NCBI GenBank assembly: GCA_949987705.1
Contig: OX465281.1
Coordinates: forward strand, 3,450,001-3,514,000
Direction of reading: 5' to 3'
DNA: 64,000 bases
Source of the DNA: Thereva unica
Taxonomy: Eukaryota; Arthropoda; Insecta; Diptera; Therevidae
Shown: positions 24,069 to 58,175 of the stretch, in pieces
How the letters are laid out: each line of letters opens with the position of its first letter
Position numbering within the stretch: the stretch's first letter is position 1
Program-made: the position numbers and the translations under genes
The notes under the pieces: generated by a model
What the model was told of the DNA's origin: nothing
Seen by the model: only the letters and a program-made list of their open reading frames with translations
Databases searched by the model: none

Positions 24069-25099
24069 TTAAAAGTTAAAAAATCTCCTCTTGCTTTTCT
24101 TCTCCTCCTCCTTCGATCCGTCGTTCGGCGGATGGCTGCGTGGCGGCGGTGGTGGTGGTGAGTTATCCTCCACAGCAATACCAGCGGCGTTATTGTGGTT
24201 ACTAATGCTAGGATTGTTGTTGTTCACTACGACATCACCACCAGCAGCATGACTTCCTGGAATCGGATTCAGCAGGATACTTTCAAGCTTCGATACTGAA
24301 TGGACCGAAGCAAGATCGGCCGAAGGAGTTTGATTCTGGGATTTTCTACTCTCCTCTTCGGCCATTTTAAGACCGATCGTTGCTCCCAACTTGGCGCTTG
24401 CATGCGCAAAGCTGTCCTTAAGCTTTTCCTGTACAACATTAATGCACATGGAAGTCAACGCCAGGCCGAATATCAAGTAGATAATGCTGCACATCATGAA
24501 GATCGGATGATCTGGCACAAAGTCACCAAAGCCGATCGTTGACATAGAAATGAAGACGAAGTAGAACGACTCAAAATAGGACCACTTCTCCCAGAAATGG
24601 TAGATGAATGCGCCGAAGAAAATATACCCCAAAAGTATCGTGGTAGCCAATGACACAGGTAGATTGAACTCGTCATCAATAACCATTGTCTCAGGATAGG
24701 GCGTTGTCGGAGTTTCGGCATTTGATATTGTGTACGCCTGTGTTGAAACTGAATGCGGTGTTCCCGGTTCCTTGTGGTCCCTATCGGGAGCTGCAGCTGA
24801 TTGTGTCGGGGATTTCATCGATTCTCCGTCTCTGATAAATGCGCTGGGGCGTCTTATTGTGATGTCGTACATTGTGTTGAAGTTTTTCATAGTTTGTCGT
24901 ACTTGTTTCTGATGGCGTATTTTGCGACAGGTACCAGTGTAGTATACTCGACGGACGTAGGCCCATAGGAATTTTATGCATCTGGTGAAGAGTTTGCCGA
25001 AATCTGCTAGTAGGATGAGGAAGATTGGAATACCAATGATGGCGTAAATAATTGTTACTCCTCGGCCGATTGTTGTTTTTGGTGTTATGTGACCGTATC
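24069..25099 (-). CDS. K2P channel shared terminal exon (TM2, TM3, pore 2, TM4, C-tail)
   Basis: The acceptor is CTTTTTAG|GATACGG. The exon supplies the last two bases of a Gly codon and then YGHITPKTTIGRG, the end of filter 1 and the start of TM2 (VTIIYAIIGIPIFLILLADF, with the conserved GIP). A roughly 110-residue cytosolic loop with TP and Ser-rich stretches follows. TM3 is NLPVSLATTILLGYIFFGAF, pore 2 is SFYFVFISMSTIGFGDFVP, and TM4 is CSIIYLIFGLALTSMCINVV. The C-tail carries an Asn/His-rich run and PPPPPP, and ends KSKRRFFNF with TAA at 24071-24069. STIGFGD is the typical second K2P filter. No other exon in the window could serve this role, so forms A and B probably share it. Confidence 0.92.
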
Positions 25100-25854
25100 C
25101 TAAAAAGTAAATAAGAGATTTTTTAGTTTATTTGGAATTTTTGATATGAGGCTATGTTTGGACGAAGTATTCGTTAAGTACTTAACGCTATAATCATATA
25201 CTTAATTTTATTTTGCGCTGTTTTTATCAAGTTTAACTAGAGCTCCTGAGTAAATTTAAGAAATTTTGTTTTTTACAAAAAAGCAGAAAAGTAAAGTCCA
25301 TGCCTTGACGCTATTTTGCTTGTGGAAGTAGGCTTCTTCGGCAAATCTTTAAAAACGTCACAGATGCAGAAATAACAAAAATCAGTTGGATTAATGATAA
25401 TAGATAGGCTACTTCGAAAGATAGCCTCCATCTAAACACAGGATCCAACGGCACACGGTGTTTCCCAACGGTCACCGTCTAAGTGATAACCGTGACCAAT
25501 GCTGCTTGACTTAGATGATCGGTTTATAAAGTATGCTATGCGCTAAACGAAATTTGAACAAACTTTGCGTGGCAAATACATTTAAGATCATAAGCCGTAT
25601 AAAAATTTACGCATGTACAGAAGAGTTCCAGAAGGATGAAAAGAAGCATTCTTCAAAGCAGTAGAAAGAGAATTTAATCCCTGCTCTAGGTATGATGTGA
25701 AAATCATCTTGGGACGTAGCGAATTATAAAGATGGCAGCAAGAAAGAACTTGGACGCTGCAAAAACCAGGTTTGCGTTACCCAATAATATAAAGATTGAC
25801 AGCCGCCACGGGCCTGATGTTGGTGAGAATGTACCGAGATGCCAACTACGAATG
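25100..25854 (-). other. Shared K2P intron, proximal part
   Basis: Intronic sequence upstream of the shared exon, with no recognised feature. Confidence 0.5.
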
Positions 25855-26520
25855 GGGCTTCTTCTTCTTTCTTTGATCCGTTAACTGGCGGTCCGAGCGG
25901 GACGTCCCCGCAACGGATACGCTGTTGTCGGTGCCGCTGGGTCTCGAACTCTATTCATGATTCGTTTCCATTCTTCCCGGTTTTTGGCGACGTCTCGAGC
26001 CGCGGTAACTGATAACCGTTGATTCTTTAGGTCACCCTCGATATTCTTTAGCCAGGTTTTCTTCGGTGCCTATCGCTGGATTCTCCAGCCAGCGGGCGGT
26101 ATCGCCAGAGAAGTTTACATGGGAAGAATGGATGATGACCATTCGGCAAACATGTCCAAACCACCACAGTCGACGTTTTTGTATTTCTTCTTCGATCAGG
26201 GTCTGCTGATCACATCTTTGTCTGACTGTCTCGTTTCCAAGGCGATCGCGTAATGAGACACCGAGGATCTGCCTCAAGCATCGCATTTGGAAGACCTCGA
26301 GCTTCTTAACGTCCAGTTTGTAGAATAATAAAGAATAATTGGAAGGATCAACGTTCGGTATAGGCGTACTTTCGTTTAGATGGTAATATTTGTTCGTTTC
26401 CATATGTACCACTTGAGCGAAGCGAATGTTGCTGTTGCCTGGCCGATGCGGCTGTGAACGTCGGACGTCGATGCTACTTTCGTTTCCTCAACCAATGATC
26501 CCAAATGGGGCAAAAATCTA
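25855..26520 (-). pseudogene. RTE-like retrotransposon 3' end
   Basis: The minus-strand frame reads KLDVKKLEVFQMRCLRQILG, VSLRDRLGNETVRQRCDQQT, IQKRRLWWFGHVCRM and a tail with NRVRDPAAP and LRGRP before a stop. A (GAA)-rich 3' tail follows at 25855-25880. Same family as 4555-5397 and, by its 5' neighbours, as 40480-42915. It lies in sense orientation in the last K2P intron. Confidence 0.8.
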
Positions 26521-27236: not shown

Positions 27237-27400
27237 TCAAAAGGCCAAACCTATATGGGAAGTGAGTTGAAGTTAGGTATCATTACATAAGAATGTATAA
27301 GAGTGACTAAAGTGGAAGTAAGTGGAAGTTACATCTACTTCAGCGGAAGTATCGTCTACTTCACTTCTGTGTTACTTTTCATTTAGGTTTGGCCTTTTGA
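27237..27400. mobile_element. Short MITE with perfect 17-bp inverted repeats
   Basis: TCAAAAGGCCAAACCTA at 27237-27253 is exactly inverted at 27384-27400. The 164-bp body is non-coding with GTGGAAGTAAGTGGAAGT repeats. A target duplication is not obvious. A partial right-hand copy (TACTTTTCATTTAGGTTT) lies at about 27737-27760. Confidence 0.65.
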
Positions 27401-28184: not shown

Positions 28185-28342
28185 CAATTGTCGTTATGAC
28201 TGTTAAGCAGTACAACACGCTGTTAACAAAATTCCACGCATTTTTCCCACTGTACGTCAAGACTCCAGCTTCATAGGCCGCTTGCAGTTCCTCCTCGAAC
28301 GTTCTCAACTTGTTTCTAGCCGCTGATTTCCAATCTTCTTCT
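28185..28342 (-). CDS. K2P channel form A, exon 2 (cap and pore helix 1)
   Basis: This 158-bp exon follows a 58-bp intron whose 3' end is TTTTTAG. It encodes REDWKSAARNKLRTFEEELQ and on, the second half of the cap, then AWNFVNSVLYCLTVITTIG, the first pore helix and filter. The donor ATTG|GTAAAC is in phase 1, exactly as at the end of B exon 3. The shared exon 3.1 kb downstream adds YG to complete TTIGYG. Reading through the donor gives unrelated residues and then a stop, which supports splicing here. Confidence 0.87.
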
Positions 28343-28400
28343 CTAAAAACACAAAAAATACAAATTCATGCACGTCCAGTCTACCATAACAAAAGAGCAC

Positions 28401-29944
28401 CTCATATTGTGACTGGTAGTCCACAGTTGGTCGATGAAATTTCGTTTAATTTTGCGCAGTCCGCACTTGTAGATATTCTCGAACGATCCTTCCATAAATC
28501 TGAACATCATCCCACCGAAGCCGCAGAACAGAGCCAGCAGCACCACTTGGGACAGACACTTGTTCCAATGGAGGCGGATCTTCACGATTTCCTGCGGGTA
28601 GTCAGCCTTAAGGCGCCGCCATTCGAAGCGGAATTCGGAGATCATTTGTTTCAGGAATTGCTTTTTGGACGAGTCCAGACTGGGCTTCTGTTCTGCGGCG
28701 ACTTCTGTTATTTGTTTCTTTTCCTCGATTTTCTTTTCTTGCGGTTTTCTTTTGAAGCTTGAAAACATCCTCGAGATTATTCCTGGTTTCTTCTCCACTT
28801 TCACCTTTTCTTCTTCTTTTTCTGCTACTTTCGATTCTGCTTCACTTTTCTCGTCGATTTCTTTCTTGTCCTTTACTTCCTTCTTCTCTTTCAGTATAGA
28901 AACAAGTGGTTGAGCTGGAGGTGGTGGCTCCTCTTTCTCCTTCTCTTCTGGTCTCTCGACTTCTTCTGGTTCCTTCGCAATTTCTGCTGCAGGTGCCGAG
29001 AGCATCCTCTTGACAGGAGAGTGACTCGAATGACTAGAAGAACGGCGACTCAAGCTCTTCTTCCTCTCGGGAATTACTGGCTTTTCCACAACCACCTCCT
29101 CGTCATCAACATCCGCTTCCACTGCATCCGAATCCGACGATGAGATCGTAGATGACTCATAATCAGGATACACGGGCGGAGTTATCGGTATCTCGATAGG
29201 CGCTCGCACTAGTTCCGAGGCTGGACGTTTCGTTTCCCGGACAATCTCGGTCTTCCGGCCCCTCTCTTCGGGATCGTTCGTTGGCAAGGTTATGCGATCG
29301 CTGACCTTCCTGTAGGTTTCCATAAGGCGTTTCCTGTCGTCTTCGATCTGCTTGTATCGAATTTTGTTGTGTAGGTCTCGTTTTTCTCGTTCGAACTTCT
29401 TCTTATCAAGATCAAATTTGCGTCGTTCCTCTTCAAATCGCTGCAAGTTTCGTTCCAGTCTTGACAGGCGATCGTCTTCACTGGGCTTAGACATTCCCGG
29501 TGGAAACTGTGTCCTCGGCGGCGGCAGAGGAGCCTGGGGCCGAGGGTGGTGTGGCGACGATCGACCACTTTCACTCGACTCTTCCTTGTGTCTCGGCGAG
29601 GACAAGCTCCTTCTAGCCGATCGCAGCAAGTCAAACACCTCAGGAGTGGAATTCACTTCGTCCTCCTGCCTAGGGCTGGACAGACTCCGTGCTACCGCTC
29701 CCGTGAAGTTCTTGTTGCGGCGACTCAATATTTTGCTCTTGTGCGCCGAAATGGTTCCGGCCGGCTTGATTTGCATTTTAATAGATTGGACGTTCGCCTG
29801 CTCAGCTGAGCTGCTCTCGTCTTCCGCGGACGGCCTCCTCGCCGTGCTGCGGCTCGTCGGTTCTGGTGTTTTCTCGCGTTGTTGTCGTGCAGCTTTTCTC
29901 CTGCGGCGCATCACAGCCGGGGCATCGACGTGGCCTTGGTCCAT
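28401..29944 (-). CDS. K2P channel form A, exon 1 (long cytosolic N-terminus, TM1, cap start)
   Basis: This exon encodes 514 residues plus two bases, starting in a good context (AAAAATGG). Residues 1-155 are basic and Ser/Pro-rich, with repeated SLSSPR motifs at about 87-92 and 113-118. Residues 157-215 are a highly charged, predicted coiled-coil-like helix (LERNLQRFEEERRKF onward). Residues 262-285 are acidic and serine-rich. Residues 325-420 are a Lys/Glu-rich tract with a PPPP run. TM1 is about 463-482 (CLSQVVLLALFCGFGGMMF), followed by FRFMEGSFENIYKCG, the start of the cap. The donor is ATGAG|GTGCTC. Most K2P subunits have short N-termini, so about 450 cytosolic residues is unusual. The function of the tail is not known to me. 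Confidence 0.88.
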
Positions 29945-30130
29945 TTTTTCGTCGCTCTCTCTCTCTCTCGCTCTGTCACGGAAATATTTTCCTTCGCAAC
30001 ACGCTCTTCACCTCACTTCAGTTCTTCTCACCCTCGGGAATATTCGCGAACACTTTATATGCACTTGGACAAATTCAATCGAGTGAACGCACAGTCTTGA
30101 AGGCGGCCATTTTTCACGCTATAATTAGGA
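29945..30130 (-). promoter_or_regulatory. Leader and possible promoter of form A
   Basis: Upstream of the form A ATG is a leader containing a (GA)n run at about 29955-29980. A TATA-like ATATAAAG at 30060-30053 lies about 110 bp before the ATG. No strong initiator was recognised at the expected spacing, so the start site is a guess. What is clear is that a leader unlike intron sequence sits directly before the start of the A cassette, inside the large B intron. Confidence 0.35.
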
Positions 30131-35159: not shown

Positions 35160-35606
35160 AAACTCATGAATCTGGAGAAAAGTCGTGGTGGTTTTTATCC
35201 CGAAACAGGGCAACAGACCCCTGGAGCTGCCTAAATCGTACAGACCTATCAGCTTAACCTCTTTTCTTTTGAAAATGATGGAAAGGCTACTAGACCTTCA
35301 GACTAGGTGCAAGCTGGAGCTGTCCCTTCTTCTACAAAGCTCCCAGTTCGCTTACTCTAAGGGTAAATCAACAGAGGTTGCTTTACACCACCTGGTCAGT
35401 AAAATCGAAAAAGCCTTCCTTGCTAAAGAAACTGCTTTATGTACGTTCCTTGACATCGAAGGTGCTTTCAATAACACTGGCTATGATTCTATCTCTAGAT
35501 CATCACACGATTGAGTGGATAAATGCCATGCTTATAGATCGTGACATTTCTTCTACCCTAGGTGTCTCCACCATTGGTGTTAAGGTGCAGTCTTATCCCC
35601 GTTACT
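35160..35606 (+). pseudogene. LOA-like LINE 'A', 5' segment (RT fingers)
   Basis: Reads VVFIPKQGNRPLELPKSYRP, ISLTSFLLKMMERLLDLQ, FAYSKGKSTEVALHHLVSKI and FLDIEGAFNN, the RT fingers-palm start with one frameshift near 35500. It runs to WINAMLIDRDISSTLG. It stops at a 13-bp direct repeat, TATCCCCGTTACT (35594-35606), where another LINE is inserted. The continuation resumes at 36862. Confidence 0.8.
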
Positions 35607-36861
35607 ACAAGGTGCAAAGGATGGCCAGCGTAGGTGTGAGCGGTGCTTTCCGCACCACACCCGCCGCGGCATTGGAGGCGCTGTTAGGTCTGCTGCCGTT
35701 AGATCTCCAGGTGATGAAGACTGCGGCAGCCTCAGCGATTCGGATGAGACGGGATGCCGCATGGCAGGCGTCAGGAGCCTTATATGGGCACATGAAGATT
35801 CTGGATCGCATCAAAGGGATTAGGGAGCTCATGATGCCCATGGAAGGGATCACAAAAATGAGGGTGACCGAAAGGTATCATAAAACTCTCATAGGGAGCG
35901 GAACGCTCCCGGAAGGGAGGCCGGAAGACATATATATCTTCACGGATGGATCCATGATTGACGGCAGAGCAGGTGCGGGAGTCTTCTCAGAGGACTTAAA
36001 TCTGACCTGCTCTCTGGCTTTGGGGAATTACACCTCAGTCTACCAGGCGGAAATGCTTGCTCTGCTGCACGCGCTGGATCACATAAATGATGGTCAGGTG
36101 CAGGGAAGAAGTATCCTTATAGCACTGGACAATCAGGCTGTGATTAAGCGCATGAGTCAGACAGAGATTAATGCGTCTCTGGCGCTGGAATGTGTCCAAA
36201 AACTGAACAGGTATGCGAAACAAAACAACGTGACGCTAGCTTGGGTTAGAGGACATACACGCATCGATGGGAACGAAAAGGCTGACAACCTGGCAAAACA
36301 GGGGTCAACCTCGGAATTCTGGGGACCGGAGCCATACTCTGCCATTGGCAGAGGGTTGGTAAGGAACTGCATCGAGAAATGGGTCGCTGAGGAACACCGG
36401 AGACGGTAGGACGCTATGACCACGTGTAGGCAGGCTAAGATGGTGCTTACGTTGCCGATTACCGCAGCCAGAAGAAGGATCCTGCATATGCAAAGGAGAA
36501 CCCTCAGATGGTTGGTGGCACTGATTACAGGACACGGATGTTTCAGGTATCACCTAAAAAGAATGGGAATTCTGGAGGATGACACCTGTCGGATGTGCCT
36601 GGAGGAACCTGAGACGGCCACACACATAGTGTGTCACTGTCTGGCGGTGGCGAGAAAAAGGGCTGCCATAACTGGACTCCATTGGATGGAGGACATGAGG
36701 CAGACTCCCTTCAATCAGCTGCTTGCGATAACTAGGGGAGTCGAAGCAAGGGAGCAATGGGACAACCCACTGCAACCCCAATAAGATGACTCTAGGCAGA
36801 GGGACGAAAAGGGACCCGCAAATAGTGGTCTGATTCGATATCCCTCGAAAATCTATATATA
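35607..36861 (+). mobile_element. 5'-truncated I/LOA-group LINE 'B' inserted in LINE 'A'
   Basis: The insert is bounded by perfect 13-bp duplications, TATCCCCGTTACT at 35594-35606 and 36862-36874, and ends in a short TA-rich tail. It encodes the RT thumb (RMASVGVSGAFRTTPAAALE), an RNase H domain with the acidic residues in FTDGSMIDGRAGAGVF, QAEMLALLHAL and ALDNQA, then WVRGHTRIDGNEKADNLAKQ. After one in-frame TAG at about 36407 the same frame continues into a CRMCLEEPETATHIVCHC zinc-knuckle and stops at 36783. This is the best-preserved element here and a recent insertion. It probably came by target-primed reverse transcription. Confidence 0.88.
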
Positions 36862-43735: not shown

Positions 43736-43907
43736 CTATCGTGGTGTAGATCGTTCCGCAGTAGAACATGGCGTTCCAGAACGACCATGGATTCTCGAAG
43801 AACTCCAGCTCCTCCTTGGTCTTCTCGTTGTTCAGGAACGAGCCCACGGCGTCTTTGTGCTCGCGCAGAATGTGTATCACCTGTCCGTCCCACTCGTCCG
43901 GCTGATT
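43736..43907 (-). CDS. K2P channel form B, exon 3 (cap second part and pore helix 1)
   Basis: This 172-bp exon follows a TTACAG acceptor and ends ACGATAG|GTGAGT in phase 1. It encodes NQPDEWDGQVIHILREHKDA and on, then the first pore helix and filter NPWSFWNAMFYCGTIYTTIG (about residues 208-227). The filter stops at TTI plus the first base of a Gly codon. The YG that must follow is supplied by the shared exon at 25099, giving TTIGYG. The 18.6-kb intron to that exon contains the whole A cassette. Confidence 0.87.
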
Positions 43908-43994
43908 CTGTAATTAAGGTGAGGCGGTGTGTGATCTTCGCAGTTTTAATGACATTTATTTATAAATAGGCAATTATTTATGAGATTCGCTTAC

Positions 43995-44092
43995 CCGAAG
44001 GATTTCGGTGTCCAATGCCAGATCGCGCAGAGCTTGAAACAAATCTTTTTGTGCCGCATGGGAGTTGAAGAATTCCTGACGTGCTTGCTTCT
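43995..44092 (-). CDS. K2P channel form B, exon 2 (extracellular cap, first part)
   Basis: This 98-bp exon lies between a TTTCAG acceptor and a CGG|GTAAGC donor. It completes a Glu codon and encodes EKQARQEFFNSHAAQKDLFQ and on to EILR (about residues 138-170), a charged helical stretch. That is what is expected for the first helix of the K2P extracellular cap, which follows TM1. It contains no cysteine. It is separated from exon 3 by only 87 bp, and a Ty3/gypsy integrase relic begins about 90 bp on its 5' side. Too short to be called as an ORF by itself, it is supported by frame, splice sites and context. Confidence 0.8.
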
Positions 44093-44184
44093 CTGAAATT
44101 AAATAATGATCAGTTTTTGGGTTTTTGGAATTGATCTAGAAAATTTAAAAATAATTTTTTGAAGGTCGTGAAAAGGGGTACCCA

Positions 44185-44985
44185 ATGAAAGCTTTTACCT
44201 TATTGACATAGTTGAACCAATGAACGAATCGTTGGGATTCAAGTATTGTTTGGCCATGATAGACCGTTACAAGCGATGGCCGTACTCCTATTAAGGATTT
44301 CACAGCCAACACTGTATTTGATGCATTGTTTTCAACATGGATAGCACGATTTGGCACACACCAGCAATTATCACGTCTGACCGAGGGACACAATTTGATT
44401 CCCAACTATTCGAAGGCTTTGCGAGTGCACCACAGCTTATCAGCCCCAAGCCAATGGGATCGTCGAGAGATGGCACAGGGCGCTGAAGGCGGCGATAAAA
44501 TGCTACGAAGGTGTCGATTTGGTGCAGCATTACCTGTAGTCCTATTGCTACTAAGAAAGAGGATATTGGGAATCCAGCGCGGAGTTGTGAATGGAACCAC
44601 ATTGAGGTTACCATGAGAGTATTTTCTACAAGAGCACTTCGAGCCCGACTGGACAATTTTCAAAGAAAATCTCAGGGAACACATGCGCGAACTTAGACCA
44701 CACCAAACCGCTCATCACATAAAGTCCAAAATTTTCAAAAGCAACGACTTACACACATGCGCATACGTATGCAATAAGCTGGACGGGGCAAGAAAACCCA
44801 TCGAGCAACTATTTGCGCGCTATCTATTAGTCAGTTTTGAGCGAGCGGTAACTCAAAATATTAAGCTTCTCAAAATTTGTAGAGATTGCGAAAATAAAAT
44901 GCTCAAACGTGCCTGGGATATATTTGTAATCACTCTGCGGTATCAAAAAAATTGCGTTCCGCCTTTAATCTCCACATAAGCTAGC
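44185..44985 (+). pseudogene. Ty3/gypsy-like integrase remnant
   Basis: Reads DIVEPMNESLGFKYCLAMID, RYKRWP, TPAIITSDRGTQFDSQLFEG (the DRGxQF motif of the integrase core), then a region with ATKKEDIGNPA and a C-terminal part with HIKSKIFKSNDLHTCAYV. Several stops and frameshifts break it. No LTRs, protease or RT were recognised nearby. The fragment sits in the first intron of form B, on the opposite strand to the channel. Confidence 0.75.
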
Positions 44986-47212
44986 ATTTTGTATTTTCTA
45001 CCAAAAGGGTTTTCCTACGAAATCGTAGGCTGATATTAAAATTTTCCTCAATTCTTTAGAAATATAAATAAATAAAATTTATCCTAAAAGTATGCAATAT
45101 CAAATATTCATAAGTTAATGAGAATTTCATCATAAAAGTATGCAGAGAAAAAACAACCAGCCCACAGAGACGTTACGTCGTTCATAGATTCGAATGATAT
45201 TCAATCAAATACACTTAATCCCTTTCTACAAGTTCGGAAACTAATTCCAAACTCCACAACACCTTGAAGTTGAACTGTAGTTTTTGTTGAAAACAACTTT
45301 CCCCATACACAACAATTCTGCCCAATCAGCAAGGCCAATGCCAGAAGTCTGAAAAACTTTTTTTATTTTTTTTTTATTAAACACATTTGGCACACGAGAA
45401 CAAAAGATCTCGAGCCACATTGCCACTCCAATAGTTCGATAAAGGATAAACTATCAGGAAATATCGCGTTTCGTATCGAACGAAATATACTGCCAAGAAT
45501 AGGGCGGGATGTCGCACTTAAATCGCTCTAGGCGTTCACTTTTACGTGTGTGTGTGTGTACGTGACTCGAAAGGAGATGGAAGAAAACGGGGATTCAATT
45601 TGGAAATATAAAATAACATAACATAAAAAACAATGAGGGCTTGTTGATATGTTTTTCATTCAATTGGGCAAAATGTTTGCTCTTCTGAGAATGATTATAT
45701 ACACGAATACCAAATGACGAACAATTTGGCAGATGGTTCGGCAAATCAGTGAAAACGTTTTGTGGAGCGTAGTCAACGAGCTCTTGCTTAGGTATTATAA
45801 TTTGCTGTGACTATTGATCCTTCCCCTGCTCGGCAAAGGCTCTTATGACGAGGAGGATGTCCCTGGAAGATTATCGTGGAGGGTTGTGGATTTTGATTCG
45901 GATTTAGTAGCAGATTTCGTTGGCGGTTTACTTAAATTAATTTTCAATAGAAAAACGTATCCTTTTTTTGCCAAAGCGAATCCTTCAAAACTAAGCTTAA
46001 AAATCCCACCCTTAAGAGTTAAGCTTTTGACTACATTAGGAGAAGGTAATCCTGAATTTCCCGAAATAAGGTTAATCAAATGTCATTTACAAATACATCG
46101 CCTCCCCCTGCCATCCAGGACAATTTCGATCCCTTTTAATCTAGTTCAGCCTACGTGTTATCGCCTGCTCCTCCATGGCTTGGACATTTCGGGGGTAGAA
46201 GCAGGCACTTGGGGACCTGGTCTCCGGGAGCATTCCAGGAATGCTTAGTTTTGTCGAGGAAATGTTCTGTGGGGATTAATAAAATTCCGACTCGGGGTCG
46301 AGAGCAATATCATAACGAGGGGATTGTTCCCCTTTAGGTCGACCTACCGCAAGACGGGGGGGCGTATTCTGCTCGGTTCATCGGATTATGGCAGCCCGGG
46401 TTACCAAGCAATTTTTTGCCCTGGAATGAGAGATAAAGCCGGAATTAAGAACCTGTAACAAGGTGAAATTGCGGCATGTTAACTCGAGTTTATAAATTAA
46501 ACATTTCTTTTTATCGGCACTCAGTTTTTGTTTAAACTTCTGCGAGGGCGGCGCTGCTCCCTTTTGATGTGCTGACTTTCAATGCTAATGAACAATTTCG
46601 AGTGGTAAAATATTTATTGTTGTTTTTTGTGTGGCTGGTGAAAGGGAATTTGTAATTTCGTTTAATGCAAAATTCTCAGGCTTGTATGAAGGCTAATAGA
46701 CGTGGGATTCGGGAGGGGGTTGAGGAGTTCCGTTTGAGTTGGGATGAAAGCATCAACAGTCAATGCAAATTTATTGTATGTAAAGAATAGATGAAAAGTT
46801 CGATAATTGGAACTAGAAGAACAACAAGCCTTTGGCTGGCTGAAATTCAACGACCACGCAACACGAGCGCAAGCTTCGGCTGAGTAGAAATCAAGTCAAT
46901 AAACAGTTCCGCAAAAACTGAATTACTTCCTTGGATACCGTGATTCCAAAAATTGATTTGAGATGAGAGAAAACCCTTTTATTCGGGCGGCTATAACGAG
47001 AAGAAGTACCATGGCGCTGCTACCCGAGGGTATGGTTGACACAACCACTAACTACCTTCCCTTAGACTGACCTTCAGGAAGGAAATCCCGGTCGAATGGT
47101 TGGGCGTTTTAGACTATCACCTATGGCAGGTAACACATAGAAGGCACGTACTTCTTGGAAGACTTCAAAGTTTTCTTCAAACTAGCCTTCCCAAACTGAT
47201 TGCGAAGGGACG
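44986..47212. other. Intron spacer
   Basis: No element recognised. A short (GT)n run lies at 45547-45560. The 144-codon frame at 45814-46245 has no family signature. Confidence 0.35.
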
Positions 47213-47277
47213 GTAGGTTGCGTAGGTCAAGCAGCATTGGAGGTGGTGAGTACTTAATTGGAGAACCGATTTACAAG
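47213..47277 (+). repeat. Dispersed repeat X, copy 2, left part
   Basis: GGTTGCGTAGGTCAAGCAGC and a following TACTTAATTGGAGAACCGAT block match the other copies. The copy is cut by the hAT-like element at 47278. It resumes at 48446 with ACTCACATTTGGAATGGTCG. Confidence 0.7.
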
Positions 47278-48437
47278 CAGGGACGGGCTTTCATAGGTGC
47301 ATATGGTGCACTTGCACCGGGCGCAATTGGACGTGGGCGCAATTTAAGATTTTGAAGAAAATATAAGACTTTGTTTCCGTGACTTCATTTTCATAAATTA
47401 AAGGAATTCACTTTTATTACCCCGATCTATTGTTCCCAATTTCTTTTCTCGATAAAATATTCTGTACGTCTGTCCCCGAAATAATGCCGATCCCGCAGGG
47501 GGAACAAGTTACAAACAAGTTAAATTGTGTCAAGGGCTGCATGACAGGGGGTAGGTTTTGAACTGTCGTTTAAGGATCTCTTCTGGGCACCGGGTTATAT
47601 AATGACCTATTCTGATATGGAGGCTCTGTCAAAATGGATCCTTTCGTGAACTCCTTCCCTACAGACCAAAGACAGGATGACGGCCTTGAGCCCGACTAGC
47701 CAAGAAGCAAACCTAGACAGCCGCTGGCCGTTCTGCCCAAAGTTTCTGGGCCCGCAGCACCAGTTCCCATTTAATCTAGGGGAAACATTCCTATCAACCA
47801 GGGACAGAGGAACCCCAGAAAAAGGAAATAAAAAGAACAGTGGAATCGCAATAACCCTCCTATAAGGAAAACAAAGAGACCCGGACCGCCGCCGCTCTGC
47901 CCTAAACTTCTGGACTCACCGGACAAGGAGAGCCGGAGTGGGATTGGGGAGCCCACGGAGCATACCTGGCCCACTTTTGTGAATTCCTTCCGAACAGATC
48001 GAAGGCTGGATTTCGGTCGGGAACCCGGAAAGCTTGAACAGTCGAGCCACTAGGCACTGGGGGTTGGTGTAGTACAATAGACCAAGCGAATGGTCGCGGT
48101 ACTTTTGGACCCAATATCTCACGACCAAAAAAATACCCATGAAGTGAATGAACAGACTTTCTTCTTCTGCACTGTTGGAGCACCTATAAATCTTGTTCCA
48201 AAATTTGTTAAAAGAGGCAAATAAATGAAATGTAGGGAACAAAATCCCAAAATGTTGCAGTGCGTCAATGACTATGGCGAACTATTTACTAGATCTTGGT
48301 TGGTTTATTAAATTTCCAAAAAAATCATCTAGGGCTTTGTGGTAAACTTTTCCTGCTTCTTTCCATTGCGATCAAAAAATGATGGGGCGCAATATGGTAT
48401 TATGCACCGGGCGCAAAAAAAGTAAGAACCGGCCCTG
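47278..48437 (+). mobile_element. hAT-like non-autonomous element, copy 2
   Basis: Starts CAGGGACGGGCTTTCATAGG and ends GAACCGGCCCTG. It carries GGTGCACTTGCACCGGGCGC near the left end and GTGCACCGGGCGCAAAAAAA-type sequence near the right. Perfect 8-bp flanks TTTACAAG lie at 47270-47277 and 48438-48445. At 1160 bp it is twice the size of its relatives. 47,560-48,200 may be foreign sequence, with a TGTAGTACAATAG block also seen at a LINE end near 14060. It is inserted into repeat X. Confidence 0.88.
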
Positions 48438-48445
48438 TTTACAAG

Positions 48446-51114
48446 GCGTCACTCACATTTGGAATGGTCGATTATTCCGTAACAGGGGCATGCATACCTC
48501 TGTAGCGAAAGTACTTTTAGATTTTTGTAACCGTGCCGGACATATTTGTTCTCTATGGATGTTAGCTACGGGCTCATATATGCTTCTAAAAATGTTAGTA
48601 CCTCTGTACTGGGTTTGTGCGTGAATATACCAACTAATTACTTTTATTCGGCGGTTCTGGCATTCCCGGCAATATTCTCTTTTTTTTGTTGGTACCACAG
48701 GGAATCAAGTCCTACCAAGCTGTGTCGATAACTTGACGCTTCTGAAGGGCCGTTGGTGATACAAACACATCTAGGTACCAGCTCCGACTCGGATCACTAT
48801 CTTTATCCGTATTACAACGCAAGAACGCTTTCTGTAACTTCGTATTACGCTTGAATCAACATTGCTGCCCTACGCAACGAGACGTGAATGTGTCTGTGGC
48901 ACTATGACTCATCTGGCACTCGGTAGTCATTCACGTAAATGGCAATGTGATGTGTATAATCTCAGGTCTCCTACAGTTTTTGAACGTAGGATCCGTGCCG
49001 CGGTTTAGTATGTCCAGGTTAGTAGTTAAGAGGTAATCAAAAAGGTATTCACCCCTTTACTCTACTCCACTACAGCCCTAGGCGTCATGGTGGAAGATCG
49101 CATCGCATGACGATGATCTGCAGACCCTGCAAAAGACTGCCTGGGCAGACTTACTGTGTTGCAGAGTGCACTGGAGCACTCATATCCTTGGATTCTACCT
49201 GCTGCTGTGAGCCAGTATGAGTCTCCCGTTTCCTTCCAATCTCCTTGGCTTTGATTCGACTGATCGAGATTCTGTAGATTACTCGTTCCGGATCTGTAAC
49301 ATGGTAAGGGACCTAGAAGCTCATCCGTTTTAGTTTCTGGTACGTCCTTTTCCTCGATTACTTGGAGTTGACAGTGGAGTTACTTAAGCCCGTAATTAGA
49401 CGACAGCATTCGTCAGTCACAAACTCATGAGGATTCCTCCTCAGTAAATTTTCTCTCGGGAAAGTTGTCCAGGACCATTGCATTGATGATCCCGGTCAAC
49501 TTAACTCTGTCTAAGGGTACCTTCCGTTCTTTCCCTGCTCCCCTGGAGAATCTTCTGACCGCTGCCGCTGCAGTGCACCAAATGGGTCACTATGACCACC
49601 AAAAGGTATGGAAGCGGGTGTATCCTATTTTATGGTACGTCCAGAGACTTTTAACAGAACGGCAGCTGACTGGGTCTCTGGCCTCCCAGGTTCCTAGCCA
49701 TTGTTATGTCTTCGTTTGGTTTGGAAAGAGTTTTGCGAAAGAGGGGCCGAGTGCGCTCCATGGGGCTATCGAAATCCACTTCGACCTTCCTTGCACTAGC
49801 CCTCTTCCTCTAGGCCTCTTGATGACATTTTCCTGCTACGCTGCACGACCGTGCCGACAACCCTGGCAAGTAGTTTTTCATCAGAATTGCTGCCGGCTGC
49901 CTGGGGCCTGTTGTTGATTGCGAAGATGAAGCTTATATGCTGCACGAGATACCTCTAAGGAGGTATCTCTCCAGCTCTAAGCTGATTCATATGGCATCAA
50001 ACCCACAACCTTCTTCTTCGTAAGCTTTTTTGGTGTGTTTTGATCCATTCCCACGAATATGACTGGAATGGCAAGATCTGACCTAACAGAACCTCTATAT
50101 CAGGGAAAAGCTTTATAACTTTTTTATAACTGGGTGTGTCCGGTACCTAGACGAGATCGTTCGTGATAGTGCAAAAACTTTCCACTGCCATGAAGCGCTT
50201 GATATTTTGCTATACCTCTTCTTCTCATTCCCCTATGTTTTTATAGCAATCTCCTTCTCTAATGCACACGCTGCATAGTCAGCCCTACTCAATACCGTAG
50301 CCCATACTTCTCTAGGGCATTTACCATCAGCACCAGATTTTGCAGGAGTATCTCAGTAAATATAACCTCATCGAATGTGTTAAGTGATCATCTAACTATA
50401 TGTACGAGGTTCCTGGGCTGTTCTGTTTTAGTGCTGTATTTCCTACTGAAGATAACTTAGCTTTCGCTGGATTGCTATCTAAGACCCTTGGCTAGTGTGT
50501 GTCACTAACGAATGTGATATCTCATACGAAGCCTAGCGGTTCGAAAGCTATTCGCACCAACAGTTTCGGTATTACGACAGTGATCCTCTTTCAACATGAA
50601 CACATTTTGAGTGCCTGTTTAGACCTATGCCGAAACCCCGAGTCAAGCTTCACTAAGGTCCTGACCAATAAGATCGTAGAAGGCCGCCAAATAGGTAGAC
50701 CAGTTGACTTACTGGGACTTCGTTACCACCTAACCGAAAATGCCTCTTCAATAATCTAGATAGGGAGGATCGCAATCTCTCATGTGGGGCCAGACGTATT
50801 TTCTTAGTATAGCCTTTCTCCAGGATTTCCTCTACTACGCTTTTGGCAGATATGGCTCTATATGACCTGTCGATACATCGCAGTATGCTTTGGTTTCAGT
50901 GCCTGTTACGCCACTAACTCATACCCCTCTTTTGGCCATCCACCTTATGGAGAGACGAATGTCTGCAAAAAGTCATTACCCGGTGAACTTGGCCCAAGGC
51001 TTGCAGTCTAGCTTCAGTAGTGCTATAAGAAGAGGAAGATTTTAAAAGTCAAGAGCTTAGCCGTAACAGAAAGGTAACTTCAGTGAACGAACAGGAGAGG
51101 AACTCCTTACTATG
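48446..51114. other. Unidentified intron sequence, possibly old retroelement debris
   Basis: 48446-48500 is the right part of repeat X copy 2. The rest is less AT-rich than spacer, with broken frames on both strands. A minus-strand stretch near 51000 vaguely resembles BEL/Pao polyprotein, too weak to call. Confidence 0.3.
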
Positions 51115-51122
51115 TTTACAAG

Positions 51123-51354
51123 CAGGGCCGCCGTTTGGGTTTTGCGCCCGGTGCAGTATGCCATATTGCGCCCCATCAGCTCTATATTTTTTGATCGCAA
51201 TGAAGGAAATTTGATCCAATTCCTGTAATAGATGAAAATGAAGTCACAGGAACACTTTTTTTTAAAGATTTTCTAAAATTGCGCCCTCGTCCAATTGCGC
51301 CCGGTGCAAGTGCACCATTAGCACCTATAAAAGCGCCGCTCCTGTTTACAAGTA
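51123..51354 (-). mobile_element. hAT-like non-autonomous element, copy 3 (short, inverted)
   Basis: CAGGGCCGCCGTTTGGGTTT at the left and GCGCCGCTCCTG at the right are the family termini in reverse orientation. GCGCCCGGTGCA lies inside both. The flanks TTTACAAG (51115-51122 and 51355-51362) are a perfect 8-bp duplication, identical to that of copy 2. 232 bp, non-coding. Confidence 0.88.
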
Positions 51355-51442
51355 TTAGCAGGAAAAGGGGCAGGGAATGCTCTGTTGAAACGAAAAGAAA
51401 AAGCGAATGTTATCTGGATGGAATTAGTGAAAAAACAAAGGA

Positions 51443-51513
51443 CTATGCCACTGAATCGAACCACGGACCTCAAGAATGGTAGTCGAGCCCCTCAACCTCT
51501 AGACTGCCAAGGT
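51443..51513 (-). repeat. tRNA-derived SINE head fragment
   Basis: On the minus strand, GGCAGTCTAGAGGTTGAG resembles an A box and GTGGTTCGATTC a B box. They stand at the spacing seen in the SINE heads at 33065-33140 and 60870-60950. No full SINE body is clear. Confidence 0.4.
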
Positions 51514-53403
51514 CGGTCATGTAACAAAATCTAATTGGGCACTGTTAAATCATTTTGCATCATTTGCTTTGCGTAACTGTTTGGAGCCATGTGGTTTTGT
51601 GTCCAATAGAAGAGGCTATAATCTCAAATTAAATTTTATTTACCTCCTTAAATCGTCTGGCATTGGCGGCACTAAAGCAACTTTTAATTAGCCTCTTTAT
51701 GCAAGAGGCAAAGCTCAGTCTAATCTTCCTCAAATCGGAAACCAGCTACTCAAATTCCATCAAAGTCTATTTAAAGTGGCATTATTCAAAATAAAGTGAC
51801 CAATTTACCGAAAATATTTTTAATTGAATAATAAATCACAATTTACAACCACTTCAGCCTCCGGCACAGATCTGGCAAATCACACAAAAATTATTCAACA
51901 ATAATTCTCTTCAATTTCACAGGAAAGCGACGGACGACGATTTTGATTGAGTGTGGTCCAATACCAATACGCATCGGCCAAGGACGCCGCCGCCGTTTTG
52001 ATTAGATTTCAGCTTTCCAAACATTAAAACCGATCGAGTCGAAATATTGATGTTTTGGTTCGGCAGCTTCTTCTACAGCTCCATCCCCTCGACAAAGTAA
52101 ACAGAAATGCGCGGGGAGGATGGGACCTGTTGATTTATTGCCGTATTAACTCTGGAGGCAATTTGGCAAACTGATCGGCAGAACTTTGTTGAGTCATTGA
52201 TCGCCAGAACGTCCAAGGAGTGTGGATCAATTGCATAACGAGTTGCAATAGGATCACAAGAAAAGTTTGGTCGTTTTTTGTAATAATTTTAGAGACGACT
52301 CTGTCCTTAAACGACCACCAATCCACTAATCTTCGTTAATCCATGGAACCCGTGAAGGTTGTGAATTAGGTCCGCATTTATTTTCTACCTCTAGACTGGG
52401 CTGGTGCGTATTTCTTTCACTTGCGCTTTCATTACGGCATGTATCCTGTGCGGCAGCATAAATTACAAATAAAATTAGATCACAAACACGGCAAACGATG
52501 ACGTCGAATTGAATTCATGTGTGGACTGCATTCGTAATTTGCGGCGAAATTCCTGAAATCGTTTCAACAATTTTCAATTCTCTCTCAATTCGTTCTCGCT
52601 GCTGCCATGATCCTGGCGTGTTTATGTGCAAGATTATTGTCTCGGGGGGTGGAATAATTCATGACGCTATGGATTCGGGCGTCTTGATTTCAGTTCAGTT
52701 CAGAACAAAACGAACTTAATAGACTCCTCTCCACGGACCGTGTGTGTTGTTTTTCTAAAATTAAAATCGGTAAGTCAAGACACGGTGTTTTTCAGTACAT
52801 CTTTCTGAACATGTCATAAATTTTGCCGAGAAGACTCCATCCGCACTTTGCCGCTCGTGAAAATTATTGTGGCGCTCACGGGGAAATTATTATTTTTTTG
52901 CTTGAAAATGTCTTTCGGTACTTGCGTTATTTTCTCGCGTATTTTTTTCGTCGGTTTTTTTTCACTTGGCTTGTTTCTGAACGTGAAAGTAGGTGAAACA
53001 TTTCATATGGGCCGCGGGCGGGATTGAATGGAAGATTTTCTAAAAGTGATGCTTAATGAGTTTTTTTGCATTAGTCATGGAAATTGCAAATTATTTTAGA
53101 TTTCAAAATATACAAATACCTATGTTAACAACATCGGGGGGTTTGAATATATATTTACTTTTTGGCGGTTTGGAGAATGAAATAAACTATGAACGCATCT
53201 GTCATAACAGAAAATCAGCACAGTTTTGAACGGCGATAAGCATTTCGTGGTCTTAATTCTGCAAATTATATTAACTTAAGTCCATTCATTATTTAGGAGA
53301 GCATGCGGCGAACACAAAAGCTTTTTAAAAGTTCACTGAAAATTCATAGGGTGAAAGCTTTGCATTCAGACAAACCAGCTTTTGTTTAACTGTGCAATAC
53401 ACC
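51514..53403. other. Intron spacer
   Basis: No element recognised. 51900-52130 and 52430-52720 look non-repetitive and less AT-rich than their surroundings. Confidence 0.35.
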
Positions 53404-54424
53404 ATGTATCTAAGGGCATAGCCTATTGAATTCTACTTATGATGCCCTTTCATTTGATACCCATGTTGAGGCGGTTGTGAAGAAAACGGAATCCGAGCTC
53501 TTGAGATGGCCGCCATGGACCTAACGATATATTGAGTATACTACATTGCTTATGGTGTTCTACTTATTATACCCTTTAATTTGATACCCATGTCGAAGAA
53601 GTTCTGAAGAAAATGGTAGCCCGCCCTCTTGAGGTAGCCGCCATGGATCTAACGACATAGTCTATTGCTTTCTACTTATGATGCCCTTTCATATGATACC
53701 CATGACGAGAGGATTGTGAAGAAAATGGTAATCCGTCCTCTTGAGATGGTCGCCTTGGATCTAACGATAATTGAGTATACTATATTGCTTATGGTGTTCT
53801 ACTTATCATAACATTTCATTTGATACCCATGACGAAAGGGTTTTGAAGAAAATGGTAACCCGCCCTCTTGAGATGGCGGCTATGGATCTAACGACATAGC
53901 CTATTGTATTCTTCATATACCCTTTCATTTGATACTCATGTCGAGCTGGCTGTGAAGAAAACGGAATCCGAGCTTTTGAGATGGCCGCCATGGATCTAAC
54001 GATATATTGAGTGTACTATATTGCTTATGGTGTTCTACTTATCATACTCTTCCATTTGGTACCCATGTCGAAGAGGTTCTCAAGAAAATGGTAACCCGCC
54101 CTCTTGAGGTGGACGCCATGGATCCAACGACATAGCCTATTGCATTCTACTTATGATGCCCTTTCATTTGATTCCCATGTCGAGCCGGTTGTGAATAAAA
54201 TGGTAATCTGCCCTCTTGAGGTGGCCGCCATGGATTTAACGACATAGCCTATTGCATTCTACTTATGATACCCTTTCATATGATACCCATGACAAAAGGG
54301 TTGTGAAGAAAATGGTAGTCCGCCGTCTTAAGAAGGCCGCCATGGACCTAACGATATATTGAGTATACTGTATTGCTTATGATGGACTACTTATCAAACC
54401 CTTTCATTTGATACCCCTGTCGGA
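53404..54424. repeat. Tandem array of alternating 112-bp and 128-bp monomers
   Basis: Nine related monomers follow each other. Type A (about 112 bp) begins ACATAGCCTATTGCATTCTA. Type B (about 128 bp) begins ATATATTGAGTATACTATAT. Both go on with CCTTTCATTTGATACCCATG, a GTGAAGAAAATGGTAATCCG-like block and GCCGCCATGGATCTAACG. The order is A-B-A-B-A-B-A-A-B, the last one partial, so the basic unit is a dimer of about 240 bp. Related copies lie at 640-1060. Confidence 0.9.
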
Positions 54425-55489
54425 CATCGGGGAACACAATTACAACAATTGTTCGTCATCTTCGAACCGCTATCTTGATTTTTTTTTACAAAATGGCCAG
54501 ATTGCATTGTCACGCGCACTGTGCATATGTGCAAAACTTGAAGTTAATCGGTTATATGATCGAGTTGCAAAATTTGTTTACACACATGATGCGAGATACA
54601 GGCGAAGCAAATATAAAGCGTTTAAAAAGAGACAGAGAGAGAGATTCCATTCATTTCAATAAGAAAGCATAAGCATCCATCCTCGATAATGACTAGAGCA
54701 AAAGTGTACACGTTCGTCATGCATGACACTTTGCTTTACCATTTCTTCCTATATCTACCGGTGCAAATTGGCTCCAATTTCTACAGAAAAACACTTGTTC
54801 CGAGGGGTAAAAACGCGATACTGCGTCGGTGTTCTCTAATTTCCCATATTTCCCATAACTTCTGCTCCAGCTAACAGGTTCCGAAGAGAGTGTGCGACCA
54901 TGGAAAGACATGCTGCTGCCGAAGCGGTTCTTTGAAGCCGCTATACTCGGATTTGTGTTGCTGAGCGGTAATAAGAGGTAATGCCTCTTTGTACTGTTGC
55001 CGATTTTATCATTGGGTGCAAAGCCGAAGAGTAATGTCTAATCGGAAAGATAGAAGAGGCAAGAGTGGAAGAATTGGCAATGCGAAAACGTAGTTTTATT
55101 TCATTAGCTTTCCATCTAATACTACCTTTACAGAACGCTGCCTTCAGTGATCGAACAGGACATGGCGTCCTCATCGTTTATTATGAACAGGTTTATGCTA
55201 CCGGTCACCGAACAGATACCGAACAGACTAGAGGAACGGATCAGCTAGGTTTATAGGGAAGACGGTAAGAGAGGACGGTGAAATGAGCAGATAATCTGAA
55301 TGAGCTGACATTTTGACAGTTCCTGCGTTGCTAGAAAAAGAAAGCAAAAGAAAATTTCAAAAAGAAACAAGCAAATGCTAATCGGTTTTGACTAGTTCGT
55401 TGAAGTTCGACGGTGTAAAAGCTCATGCGATCCTATGGAATTTTAAAAGATCATTAACGATACCCACTACCATTTTGAGGGGCTGCAGA
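54425..55489. other. No recognisable feature
   Basis: Intron sequence with short frames only. Confidence 0.35.
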
Positions 55490-55856
55490 TTAGGCCTGCA
55501 CGAGGCTAGCCCCACTGCGTCATGTAGATCCCGTGTGGATTGCCCTATAAGGACCCCAAGGGGCCGTCTAACGGCTTGCCCAATCCCGAGTGAAAAATAA
55601 GAGGAAACAAATTTGATAATATCGGCTGGAAATGCGAGTAATAACTGCGGCGGTGTCGAAGGTTTGTATTTTCAAACACGAGCGTCGTATTTCCAAGCGG
55701 TCCCCCAACTCAGTACCATTCACGTCCAATGCTGCTTCACCTCCGCAATCGAACGAGAACCGGTCTGATGAGTATAGACTAATTTCACTGTTGCCAACAT
55801 AATTGCCTGAAATATAAAGCAAGGCAACAAGAAAAACTAAAGCCTTATGAGTAAAA
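55490..55856 (-). repeat. Dispersed repeat X, copy 3
   Basis: In reverse orientation it contains AAGCGGTCCCCCAACTCAGT, CCAATGCTGCTTCACCTCCG, AACGAGAACCGGTCTGATGA and a terminal CAACATAATTGCCTGAAATA block. All align with copy 4. The minus-strand frame reads SDRFSFDCGGEAALDVNGTE and LGDRLEIRRSC. Confidence 0.75.
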
Positions 55857-57763
55857 TTTTGGACTCTTTGCCATGACGTTCATGTCGCACGACAAAATCT
55901 GGATTTTGGCTTGCCTTCATGTATAGCATTCAGAATCAACAAAAAGTTTTGTTTCATCGCTGCGTCTCATGGTTCACATCTGTTTGTGAAATTTTAGCTG
56001 TTTTTTCACTATTTCTGTAAGATCAAGTCTTCTTCAGTCGCAAAATTATCGTCATCGTGAACTTGTCAGTTCCGTGATTGCATGAATGAACGAGACATTA
56101 TGTCTTGCATGACTTTTGCAGCAAGACTGTGTAAGAGAGAAAATACGTGTCGCGAGACAGATAGTCCCACTTTTCGCATGCCCCTCATTACCCTCATGAG
56201 GCATGCCCCTTTTAAATGCTAGTCGAGTTTCAGTTAAGTTTTGCCTGTTCGGTGTTCGGTCGTGTAAAACCGGCCTATGCTGACAGGAAGACAAGAAGTA
56301 AAGGAATCTTTAGAGTTGAGGCTGTCTGAGGCAATACATTTGCTCCTTATGTAATGGTAAATTGTACTGAGGCCTCAAAATTTTTAAATGTCCCAGTGCA
56401 AAAATAATATCCCACTGCTCTTGGTATGAGCATGTTTCGAGATAAGTTGATTCTTGATTTTCGATTTTTAACATACAAGAGGAAATGAGGCGAGCTGTGA
56501 TCGTAACCACCTAGTGGTGGAACATGGGTTTCTAATTCCTTACTGGTTTTGCGGTTGTAAAATTCAATTTCAATAGCGACGATATGAAATGGTAAAATAC
56601 AAATATACATCGGGAGGGCTAGGTTTCTTACTTTATTACTCTTATCTTACTCTGAGGCAGTTTAATACATATTAGAAACAAACTCATTCAACAAGCTCTT
56701 TAATGGTATTTATTTTCTTTCTTTCTTTAATTTGCTTGTTTTTTTTTTCATTTTGGCTTTGAAATGTCACCTAGCCTCATTTGAAGTAGTACATTGTACT
56801 GGCTCAAAGAAAAAAGAGGCACCTCTTTCAAACAAGCTCATTTTATAATTGTGGTCTGAATTTCAAAATTCTTTCAGCTAAACTGAAATGTTATTGAAAA
56901 GGAAAAACAATAAAAGAGAAGCACTGCGCCACTTTAACTACTACGTCCAAATGTAATCTCAAACCTTTGTTCCGTCCATTCACAGCGAATTTGTAATGAA
57001 TGTCCTTTTCAACTTTGGCCAAATAAAAAGGAAAAAAAACAAAAAAAATCTCTAATTTAATTCCGGAGCATGAAATTGTTTCCAGAGATGCTTTTCTTCG
57101 CTTTTTCTTGTTGATAAAATTGAATTCCGACCCTAGAAGAGCTCCTTCCTTTGAATCCTGCCAACTTAACTTCATTTCGCACGTTTAAGGTTATGCAAAA
57201 CAAATTAGAAGGTCATGAATGCTAAGAAGAATTCGTCTAAAAGTGCCCTGAGATGGAATTATTAAACGCGCCTAATGCGCCCTCATTTGGGGCCAATTCC
57301 GCGGGCGGAACGAGATCTGCAGGCGCCGCCACAATCAATGCCACAAGTTTCCTTCGAGATTACGCAATTTCGTGTCGCCAGTGAAGTTCTGCTGTTGTTA
57401 TTGATTGTGTGCGAGAGAAGTTGCATTCAGGATGCATGATTCACTTTTCGATTCAACTAGTTTAGTCCTGTTGTAGGGCGTCAGGAGCTTTTACGACCAC
57501 TTAAAGCAGCCCTTTTCAGCTCCAGCACGTGCTTAATTGATCGAATAGAGCAGAACTATTGGGTGGTAGAAACTCTCTCTTTGGGGTTCACAAGCACACA
57601 CAAAAACTCTTTCTCGGCCCCAAATGAGAGTAGACTAACCGGCGCCCATAGTTCGGGGGAGCCCCGGGATCCAGAAGGGAGAAATGGGTCACGGATTGAG
57701 CATTGCAGTGCTAGCGCTGCGTCTGTTAAACACAACACACAACAAGATTTCTTTGCCACTCAC
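55857..57763. other. First intron of form B, 5' part
   Basis: No element recognised. 57270-57450 is GC-richer and not repeated in the window, possibly conserved non-coding sequence close to the form B promoter, but unproven. Confidence 0.35.
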
Positions 57764-58175
57764 CTTCGAGGAATCGGAACAGTAGCGCCCCACCGACGCT
57801 GTACAGGAGCACCACCAGGAACAGGAATATGTGCGTGAACCATTTCTTCGACCATTTGCTGATTCTGTCGTACAGCCAAATGACGGACTTCTCGCCGAAA
57901 CTCATGCCGGACTTGGTGAAGTCGACGAATCCGCCGAAACCCTTGCTCATAAATTCGCCTGCCTTCTGGGAGTACATCATGTTGAACGGGTTCGCATACG
58001 GGGGCCACATGTGCGATTGGGGCGCTGCTGATCCCGGCATGGTTTGGGCCGTTGCTGGCCCTATCTGGGGGGTCGGCAAGGAGGCTACGTATGGAGGGAT
58101 GTCTATCGAGATCCGGGGCGGTCTTGGCGCCATCCCTTTTCTCGGCGGCTGAGGGGGTGGCGATGACTCCGTCAT
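57764..58175 (-). CDS. K2P channel form B, exon 1 (N-terminus and TM1)
   Basis: This exon encodes 137 residues plus one base. The ATG is preceded by an in-frame TAA three codons upstream, which fixes the start. Residues 1-60 are proline-rich (PPPQPPRKG, PRPPR). Residues 70-110 are a cytosolic linker with basic and aromatic residues. TM1 is about residues 113-135 (HIFLFLVVLLYSVGGALLF) and runs into the typical K2P cap entry motif FRFLE. The donor is GAAG|GTGAGT in phase 1. The next coding exon is 13.7 kb away. The N-terminus is unrelated to that of form A. Confidence 0.85.

What the first reader, a model, noticed from the sequence alone, without database searches (positions are those of the whole stretch)
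24069..58175. One K2P channel gene with two interchangeable TM1-cap-pore1 cassettes
Cassette A (28185-29944) and cassette B (43736-58175) each encode an N-terminus, TM1, cap and first pore helix. Neither has its own TM2-TM4. Both end in phase 1 at TTI-G and fit in frame to one terminal exon at 25099. The result would be two channels with different cytosolic tails, caps and first pore helices but the same second half. Alternative N-termini are known in K2P genes, but swapping half of the permeation unit by promoter choice is far more drastic and, as far as I know, little described.
Basis: partly seen in the sequence, partly recalled or inferred. Interest (0 to 1): 0.9.

Follow-up and report, generated by a model that had tools for sequence, protein, structure and literature searches.

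The report
K2P gene with two front halves
A fly gene for a potassium leak channel carries two very different front halves (first membrane helix, outer cap and first pore helix) and one back half; A-form and B-form proteins of many winged insects share one identical back half, so each front half is likely spliced to the same back half here, which would give two channels with different gating from one gene.

Summary
On the minus strand, A1-A2 (29944-28185) and B1-B2-B3 (58175-43736) each encode an N-terminus, TM1, cap and pore helix 1 ending TTI-G in phase 1; one exon (25099-24069) supplies GYG, TM2, P2, TM3 and TM4. Both splices give open frames (910 and 570 aa) and the three B/A hybrids tested break the frame. 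No second K2P back half was found in the window.

The design is old. In 25 of 33 same-species A/B protein pairs, from six insect orders including dragonflies and mayflies, the back half is identical from GYG to the last residue, while the cassettes are 18-35% identical. Three pairs have different back halves (two longhorn beetles, one Drosophila). The cassettes form two fully supported groups and differ beside the filter: I/V in A (183 of 188), Y/F in B (90 of 90).

Databases already list some as isoforms X1/X2; ten open-access paper searches found no description. RNA of this fly, promoter choice, function and heterodimers are untested. Verdict: real; a new variant of alternative-exon channel diversity.

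The parts
28401..29944 (-). Exon A1: long charged N-terminus (about 450 aa), TM1, start of cap
   Evidence: Open frame from ATG 29944 to donor GT after 28401; matched by A-type relatives
28185..28342 (-). Exon A2: rest of cap, pore helix 1, ends TTI-G phase 1
   Evidence: AG acceptor, GT donor, in frame with A1 and the terminal exon
57764..58175 (-). Exon B1: proline-rich N-terminus, TM1
   Evidence: Open frame from ATG 58175, GT donor; matched by B-type relatives
43995..44092 (-). Exon B2: cap helix
   Evidence: AG/GT boundaries, in frame; tblastn of relatives spans B2-B3
43736..43907 (-). Exon B3: cap, pore helix 1, ends TTI-G phase 1
   Evidence: AG/GT boundaries, in frame
24069..25099 (-). 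Shared terminal exon: GYG, TM2, P2, TM3, TM4, C-terminus (343 aa)
   Evidence: One open frame to the stop; the only back half hit in the window
30054..30059 (-). TATAAA 110 bases before the A1 ATG; possible core promoter of the A transcript
   Evidence: Seen in the sequence; motif recalled, function untested

Best explanation
This is one insect K2P potassium-channel gene with two alternative front cassettes (N-terminus, TM1, cap, pore helix 1) that are likely spliced, one at a time, onto a single shared back-half exon. The likely mechanism (inferred) is two transcription starts: a distal one before B1, 33 kb from the shared exon, whose transcript loses all of cassette A with the intron, and a proximal one just before A1, 4.8 kb from it. 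Both cassettes donate from the same phase-1 point inside the first G of G-Y-G, so either fits the same acceptor, while the exon phases make the hybrids B1-A2, B1-B2-A2 and B1-B2-B3-A2 frameshift (shown). The two products would be dimeric K+ leak channels with the same TM2-TM4, second pore and C-terminus, but a different cytosolic N-terminus, extracellular cap and surroundings of filter 1 (I/V in A against Y/F in B, three residues before the filter isoleucine). They would thus likely differ in gating, trafficking or partners; A/B heterodimers are possible (untested).
For: Exon anatomy and frames; one back half in the window; two pores and K2P structure matches for both splices. Of 33 hand-picked same-species A/B pairs, 25 have back halves identical end to end, 3 differ by 1-2 residues, 1 is identical but for a 41-residue insertion, 1 is identical for 184 residues up to a differently ending model; their cassettes are 18-35% identical. 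Two pairs carry one gene identifier in the listings: D. ficusphila LOC108095215 and Manduca O3G_MSEX006302. Uninterrupted proteins from contigs of about 2-4.3 kb (source label 'lgn'): 11 B-type, 5 A-type; too short for a gene spread over 34 kb as here, so they look like assembled transcripts (inference). P0012 (B) shares 304 of 304 tail residues with a Culex A protein, P0051 (B) 276 of 276 with a Vespula vulgaris protein that carries cassette A. In 11 fused database models the B part comes first and breaks right after TTI or TTI-G, the same intron point. Cassette tree: A and B each one side of a branch, 100/100.
Against: No reads or cDNA of this species, and its genome could not be searched for another tail. 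Three of 33 pairs have different tails: Exocentrus 194/267, Anoplophora 201/265, D. rhopaloa (longest shared block 26 residues). The 11 models that join B3 to sequence before A1 could mean that A1 is also reached by splicing. B1 joined straight to the shared exon also keeps frame, so a form without P1 is not excluded. Structure models are weak (mean pLDDT 59.5 for B, 53.8 for A), Foldseek TM-scores low. Many relatives' isoforms are computed predictions.
Confidence: 0.88

Rival explanations
1. One start only: all transcripts begin before B1, and A is chosen by splicing from an upstream exon into a site just before A1, with B skipped. The two products would be the same, but the control would be splicing and not promoter choice.
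For: 11 fused database models join B3 to sequence before the A ATG, with two choices three bases apart among Vespidae (TTI-A, TTI-EA), which looks like a real splice site.
Against: In the window A1 opens with its own ATG and a TATAAA 110 bases upstream, and no exon that would join it was identified. The fused models do not agree on the linking sequence outside Vespidae.
Confidence: 0.2
2. Two separate genes: cassette B belongs to another channel whose back half lies outside the window, and its place upstream of A is a coincidence.
For: Listed B-type copies in Exocentrus, Anoplophora and D. rhopaloa do have their own tails. The rest of this genome was not searched.
Against: B3 ends in the right phase and residue for the shared exon, all on one strand; B and A proteins of 25 of 33 same-species pairs end in an identical back half; the window runs on to the T exon with no other tail in between.
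Confidence: 0.05
3. Cassette B (or A) is a relic that is no longer used.
For: No expression data for this fly.
Against: Both cassettes are intact with clean splice sites and conserved over winged insects: median identity to the window 0.54 for A (188 rows) and 0.38 for B (90 rows), with W, T and T of pore helix 1 in 90 of 90 B rows.
Confidence: 0.02

Closest known systems
Alternative N-terminal exons of K2P genes: C. elegans twk-40 (PMC9049526, passages seen) and mammalian KCNK2/TREK-1 (review PMC12490864, passages seen)
   Same: One K2P gene, several first exons, different proteins and, for twk-40, partly different behaviour of isoform mutants
   Different: In the passages seen, the variants change the N-terminus and share the channel region, or truncate it; here TM1, cap and pore helix 1 are exchanged
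NALCN alternative pore exons 15a/15b and 31a/31b (PMC3557258, passages seen)
   Same: One channel gene makes two pores by choosing between related exons; conserved over wide groups, and the 15b exons group together in a tree
   Different: NALCN swaps a short tandem internal exon and changes a selectivity residue; here multi-exon 5' cassettes with their own ATGs are swapped and the TTIGYG signature stays
Insect K2P isoforms X1/X2 in public protein records (e.g. D. ficusphila LOC108095215 X1 P0215 and X2 P0046)
   Same: The same two cassettes and shared back half
   Different: Computed annotation; product names such as trichohyalin for A forms and KCNK18 or KCNK4 for B forms do not show the shared-half design

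Membership tests
K2P (two-pore-domain potassium channel, KCNK) | Two pore domains per chain with TxGYG/TxGFG filters | tested here: met
   TTIGYGH and STIGFGD in both splices; Pfam Ion_trans_2 two stretches in each sequence given
K2P (two-pore-domain potassium channel, KCNK) | Four TM segments with a cap between TM1 and P1 | tested here: met
   Sequence matches to KCNK4 (B, E 9.6e-27, query 114-269 covers TM1 to TM2) and KCNK9/KCNK1 (A piece, E 1.1e-21 and 1e-20). Helix order in the B-form model of a relative: TM1+cap, cap, P1, TM2, TM3, P2, TM4; listed Foldseek hits are K2P for both forms, TM-scores low
K2P (two-pore-domain potassium channel, KCNK) | K+-selective leak current as a dimer | not testable with these tools
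   Needs expression and recording
Channel gene with mutually exclusive alternative cassettes | Two cassettes fit one shared exon in frame and exclude each other | tested here: met
   A1-A2-T and B1-B2-B3-T open; three hybrids with A2 frameshift; B1-T also open
Channel gene with mutually exclusive alternative cassettes | Both joins seen in RNA | tested here: inconclusive
   Not for this species; short-contig A and B proteins of unnamed sources look like transcripts
Ortholog of D. melanogaster CG34396 | Orthology to that gene | not tested
   Name recalled; no D. melanogaster record is named in the hit lists. PMC12603805 (passages) places Gar1 in an intron of CG34396; Gar1 was not looked for in the window

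The most novel reading that the evidence does not exclude
A K2P gene older than the split of dragonflies and mayflies from other winged insects switches the whole first half of its channel: promoter choice swaps cap, TM1 and the residue packing beside filter 1 (I/V to Y/F) while keeping one back half, and A and B subunits pair, so cells tune their leak through AA, AB and BB channels from one locus.
Probability: 0.35. Interest if true: 0.78.

Novelty: new variant of a known kind. Interest (0 to 1): 0.58.

Why it matters
K2P diversity is usually put down to gene number and short N-terminal variants. A conserved gene that exchanges TM1, cap and pore helix 1 against a constant back half is a natural chimera experiment: it isolates what the first half contributes to gating, and can be tested in a laboratory fly with cassette-specific deletions. 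If right, it would also explain misleading product names (trichohyalin, KCNK18) and mean that counts of insect K2P genes understate the number of channels.

Tried and rejected
Own-genome search for further K2P tails (genome search, own, PF07885) did not complete, so a second tail elsewhere in this genome is not excluded. Drosophila gene names led to no paper on this gene in the listings. A WormBook chapter was not held. A bacterial promoter scan before A1 is not informative for a fly. Reading the 11 fused B+A database proteins as real channels with five TM segments was set aside on topology (inference). Cap cysteine: one Cys after TM1 is invariant in 23 of 23 aligned A-type rows (C214 of P0177), and the cap slice of B has none in 81 of 90 rows; not used further because the slice may include the end of TM1. 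Non-insect relatives could not be sought: each of the three protein searches lists only its best 120 (of 1022, 561 and 504), and the named ones there are insects.

Rows dropped: one search left out 9 fused models, then 4 of 192 A-type and 8 of 98 B-type rows without a usable P1. The 33 pairs were picked by hand from listed names (22, 11); two cross-species pairs (Lucilia 316/321, Anopheles coluzzii/gambiae 307/309) are not counted. For A. funestus one search used P0025 (314/315); another record, P0022, is identical over 315.

Full report
What is in the sequence. On the minus strand lie six exons. A1 (29944-28401) and A2 (28342-28185) form cassette A; B1 (58175-57764), B2 (44092-43995) and B3 (43907-43736) form cassette B; T (25099-24069) is the back half. 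The internal boundaries are GT-AG. A2 and B3 both end inside the codon of the first glycine of G-Y-G, phase 1, and T completes it. A1-A2-T reads 910 residues, B1-B2-B3-T reads 570, both to the stop at the end of T; the other two frames of T hold 13 and 18 stops. An intron at this point of P1 is, as I recall, common in K2P genes; not tested.

The cassettes exclude each other by frame. Nine exon chains were tried. B1-A2-T, B1-B2-A2-T and B1-B2-B3-A2-T shift frame and stop 8 to 12 codons or so after the wrong join; A1-T, B1-B2-T and B1-B3-T fail too. Besides the two full forms, B1-T keeps frame and would lack most of the cap and P1.

It is a K2P channel in both forms. Pfam gives two Ion_trans_2 stretches for the spliced B and for the last 488 residues of the spliced A. 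Against solved structures the spliced B scores best with KCNK4 (96.9 bits), the A piece with KCNK9 (80.4) and next KCNK1 (77.2), although 343 residues are the same. Structure models of one wasp's A and B forms (Leptopilina heterotoma P0177, P0044) are of low confidence (mean pLDDT 53.8 and 59.5). The B model shows helices in K2P order; in the A model the P1 region is poorly resolved. The listed Foldseek hits are K2P channels for both, best E 2.3e-06 (A) and 9.8e-08 (B), with low TM-scores.

No second back half for B in the window. tblastn with 16 queries (two own, 14 relatives, E up to 0.1) hits T, cassette A, B2-B3 and B1, and gives two marginal hits (E 0.06, 0.07) at 2475-2675. The rest of the genome could not be searched.

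Relatives show the same design. Three protein searches list 299 different proteins: by cassette score 192 A-type, 98 B-type, 9 with both; two more short fused ones are visible. I paired A and B forms of one species by listed name: 33 pairs. In 25 the back half is identical from GYG to the end: Haematobia, Scaptodrosophila, five Anopheles (stephensi, moucheti, albimanus, aquasalis, atroparvus), four Drosophila (gunungcola, eugracilis, suzukii, ficusphila), Malaya, Uranotaenia, two Leptopilina, Lycorma, Manduca, Ischnura, Cloeon, Neocloeon, Bemisia, Halyomorpha, Nezara, Aricia, Pararge. These are Diptera, Hymenoptera, Hemiptera, Lepidoptera, Odonata and Ephemeroptera. Three differ by one or two residues (Anopheles darlingi 326/327, A. 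funestus 314/315; the firefly Photinus 283/285). Chrysoperla is identical but for an insertion of 41 residues. Cotesia is identical for 184 residues, then the B model ends differently. Three differ: Exocentrus 194/267, Anoplophora 201/265, and D. rhopaloa, whose B-type record is partial and shares blocks of at most 26 residues. The cassettes of these pairs, where aligned, are 18-35% identical.

Signs of transcription. Eleven B-type and five A-type proteins come from contigs of about 2-4.3 kb with source label lgn. The tool does not explain the label; an uninterrupted frame on so short a contig suggests assembled transcripts (inference). P0012 (B) has the tail of a Culex quinquefasciatus A protein (304 of 304), and P0051 (B) that of a Vespula vulgaris protein that carries cassette A (276 of 276).

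Order and intron point are old. In 11 database models a B part comes first and breaks right after TTI or TTI-G, and other sequence, in most of them the recognisable A N-terminus, follows. They probably result from chaining exons; the order B-A-tail that they imply is that of the window. One model of the beetle Asbolus runs B, A, tail, second B, second tail (P0121), which fits the longhorn-beetle exceptions: a second B-type copy with its own tail.

Two ancient cassettes. In a tree of 30 cassettes (14 species and the window) A and B each form one side of a branch, support 100/100 and 100% of 200 bootstrap trees. Dragonfly and mayfly cassettes fall within each side, so the two kinds are older than the winged-insect radiation (inference). 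A is better conserved than B: median identity to the window 0.54 (188 rows) against 0.38 (90 rows). At position -4 before G-Y-G, A has I/V in 183 of 188 rows and B has Y/F in 90 of 90. This residue sits at the end of pore helix 1 next to the filter, which makes a gating difference likely (inference).

Which animal. In a tree of 24 A forms the window joins a group of 12 (hover flies, dolichopodid, Drosophila, house-fly kin and one unnamed) at 97/96 and lies outside them at 96/93: probably a lower brachyceran fly (inference).

How it likely works. Two starts (inferred): a distal one before B1 and a proximal one before A1, where TATAAA lies 110 bases before the ATG (motif recalled). A distal transcript splices B3 to T and removes all of A; a proximal one contains only A. 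The cell would thus choose N-terminus, TM1, cap and pore helix 1 while keeping the C-terminal controls. K2P channels act as dimers (established knowledge), so mixed dimers are possible.

Literature. Ten searches of the open-access library listed no paper that describes this by title or abstract; subscription papers and most full texts were not read, so this is a limited negative. Nearest precedents, seen in passages: twk-40 upstream exons with a common channel region (PMC9049526), TREK-1 N-terminal and truncated variants (PMC12490864), NALCN alternative pore exons (PMC3557258). Passages of PMC6377628 compare K2P sequences, 8 Drosophila channels among them, and those seen do not mention this design.

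Noticed in passing
Database proteins P0081, P0082, P0085, P0109, P0121, P0128, P0134, P0137, P0145, P0151, P0157: Eleven database models chain a B front half into an A form. Among Vespidae two join variants three bases apart are visible (TTI-A and TTI-EA), so a real splice site may lie before A1 there.
   Followed up: partly
P0121 Asbolus, P0001 Tribolium madens, P0085/P0110 Exocentrus, P0295/P0111 Anoplophora: Some beetles seem to carry a second B-type copy with its own back half beside the B-A-tail gene; the firefly Photinus pair shares its tail (283/285).
   Followed up: partly
P0037 (Anopheles arabiensis isoform X2) against P0029: One Anopheles B form has a much longer, alanine-rich stretch in the cap than similar B forms, a possible third cap variant.
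   Followed up: no
P0004 and P0063 (Megaselia abdita): Consecutively numbered gene models ACFFRR_008394 and ACFFRR_008393 are both B-type with different tails: a possible local duplication in a scuttle fly.
   Followed up: no
P0103 (Drosophila rhopaloa, partial): A divergent B-type record with its own tail, possibly a decaying duplicate.
   Followed up: partly
window 12942-14026, 20847-21678, 35170-38392, 40689-42910: Flanks and introns hold open stretches that look like pieces of retrotransposon reverse transcriptase, RNase H or endonuclease (judged by eye, no family search).
   Followed up: no
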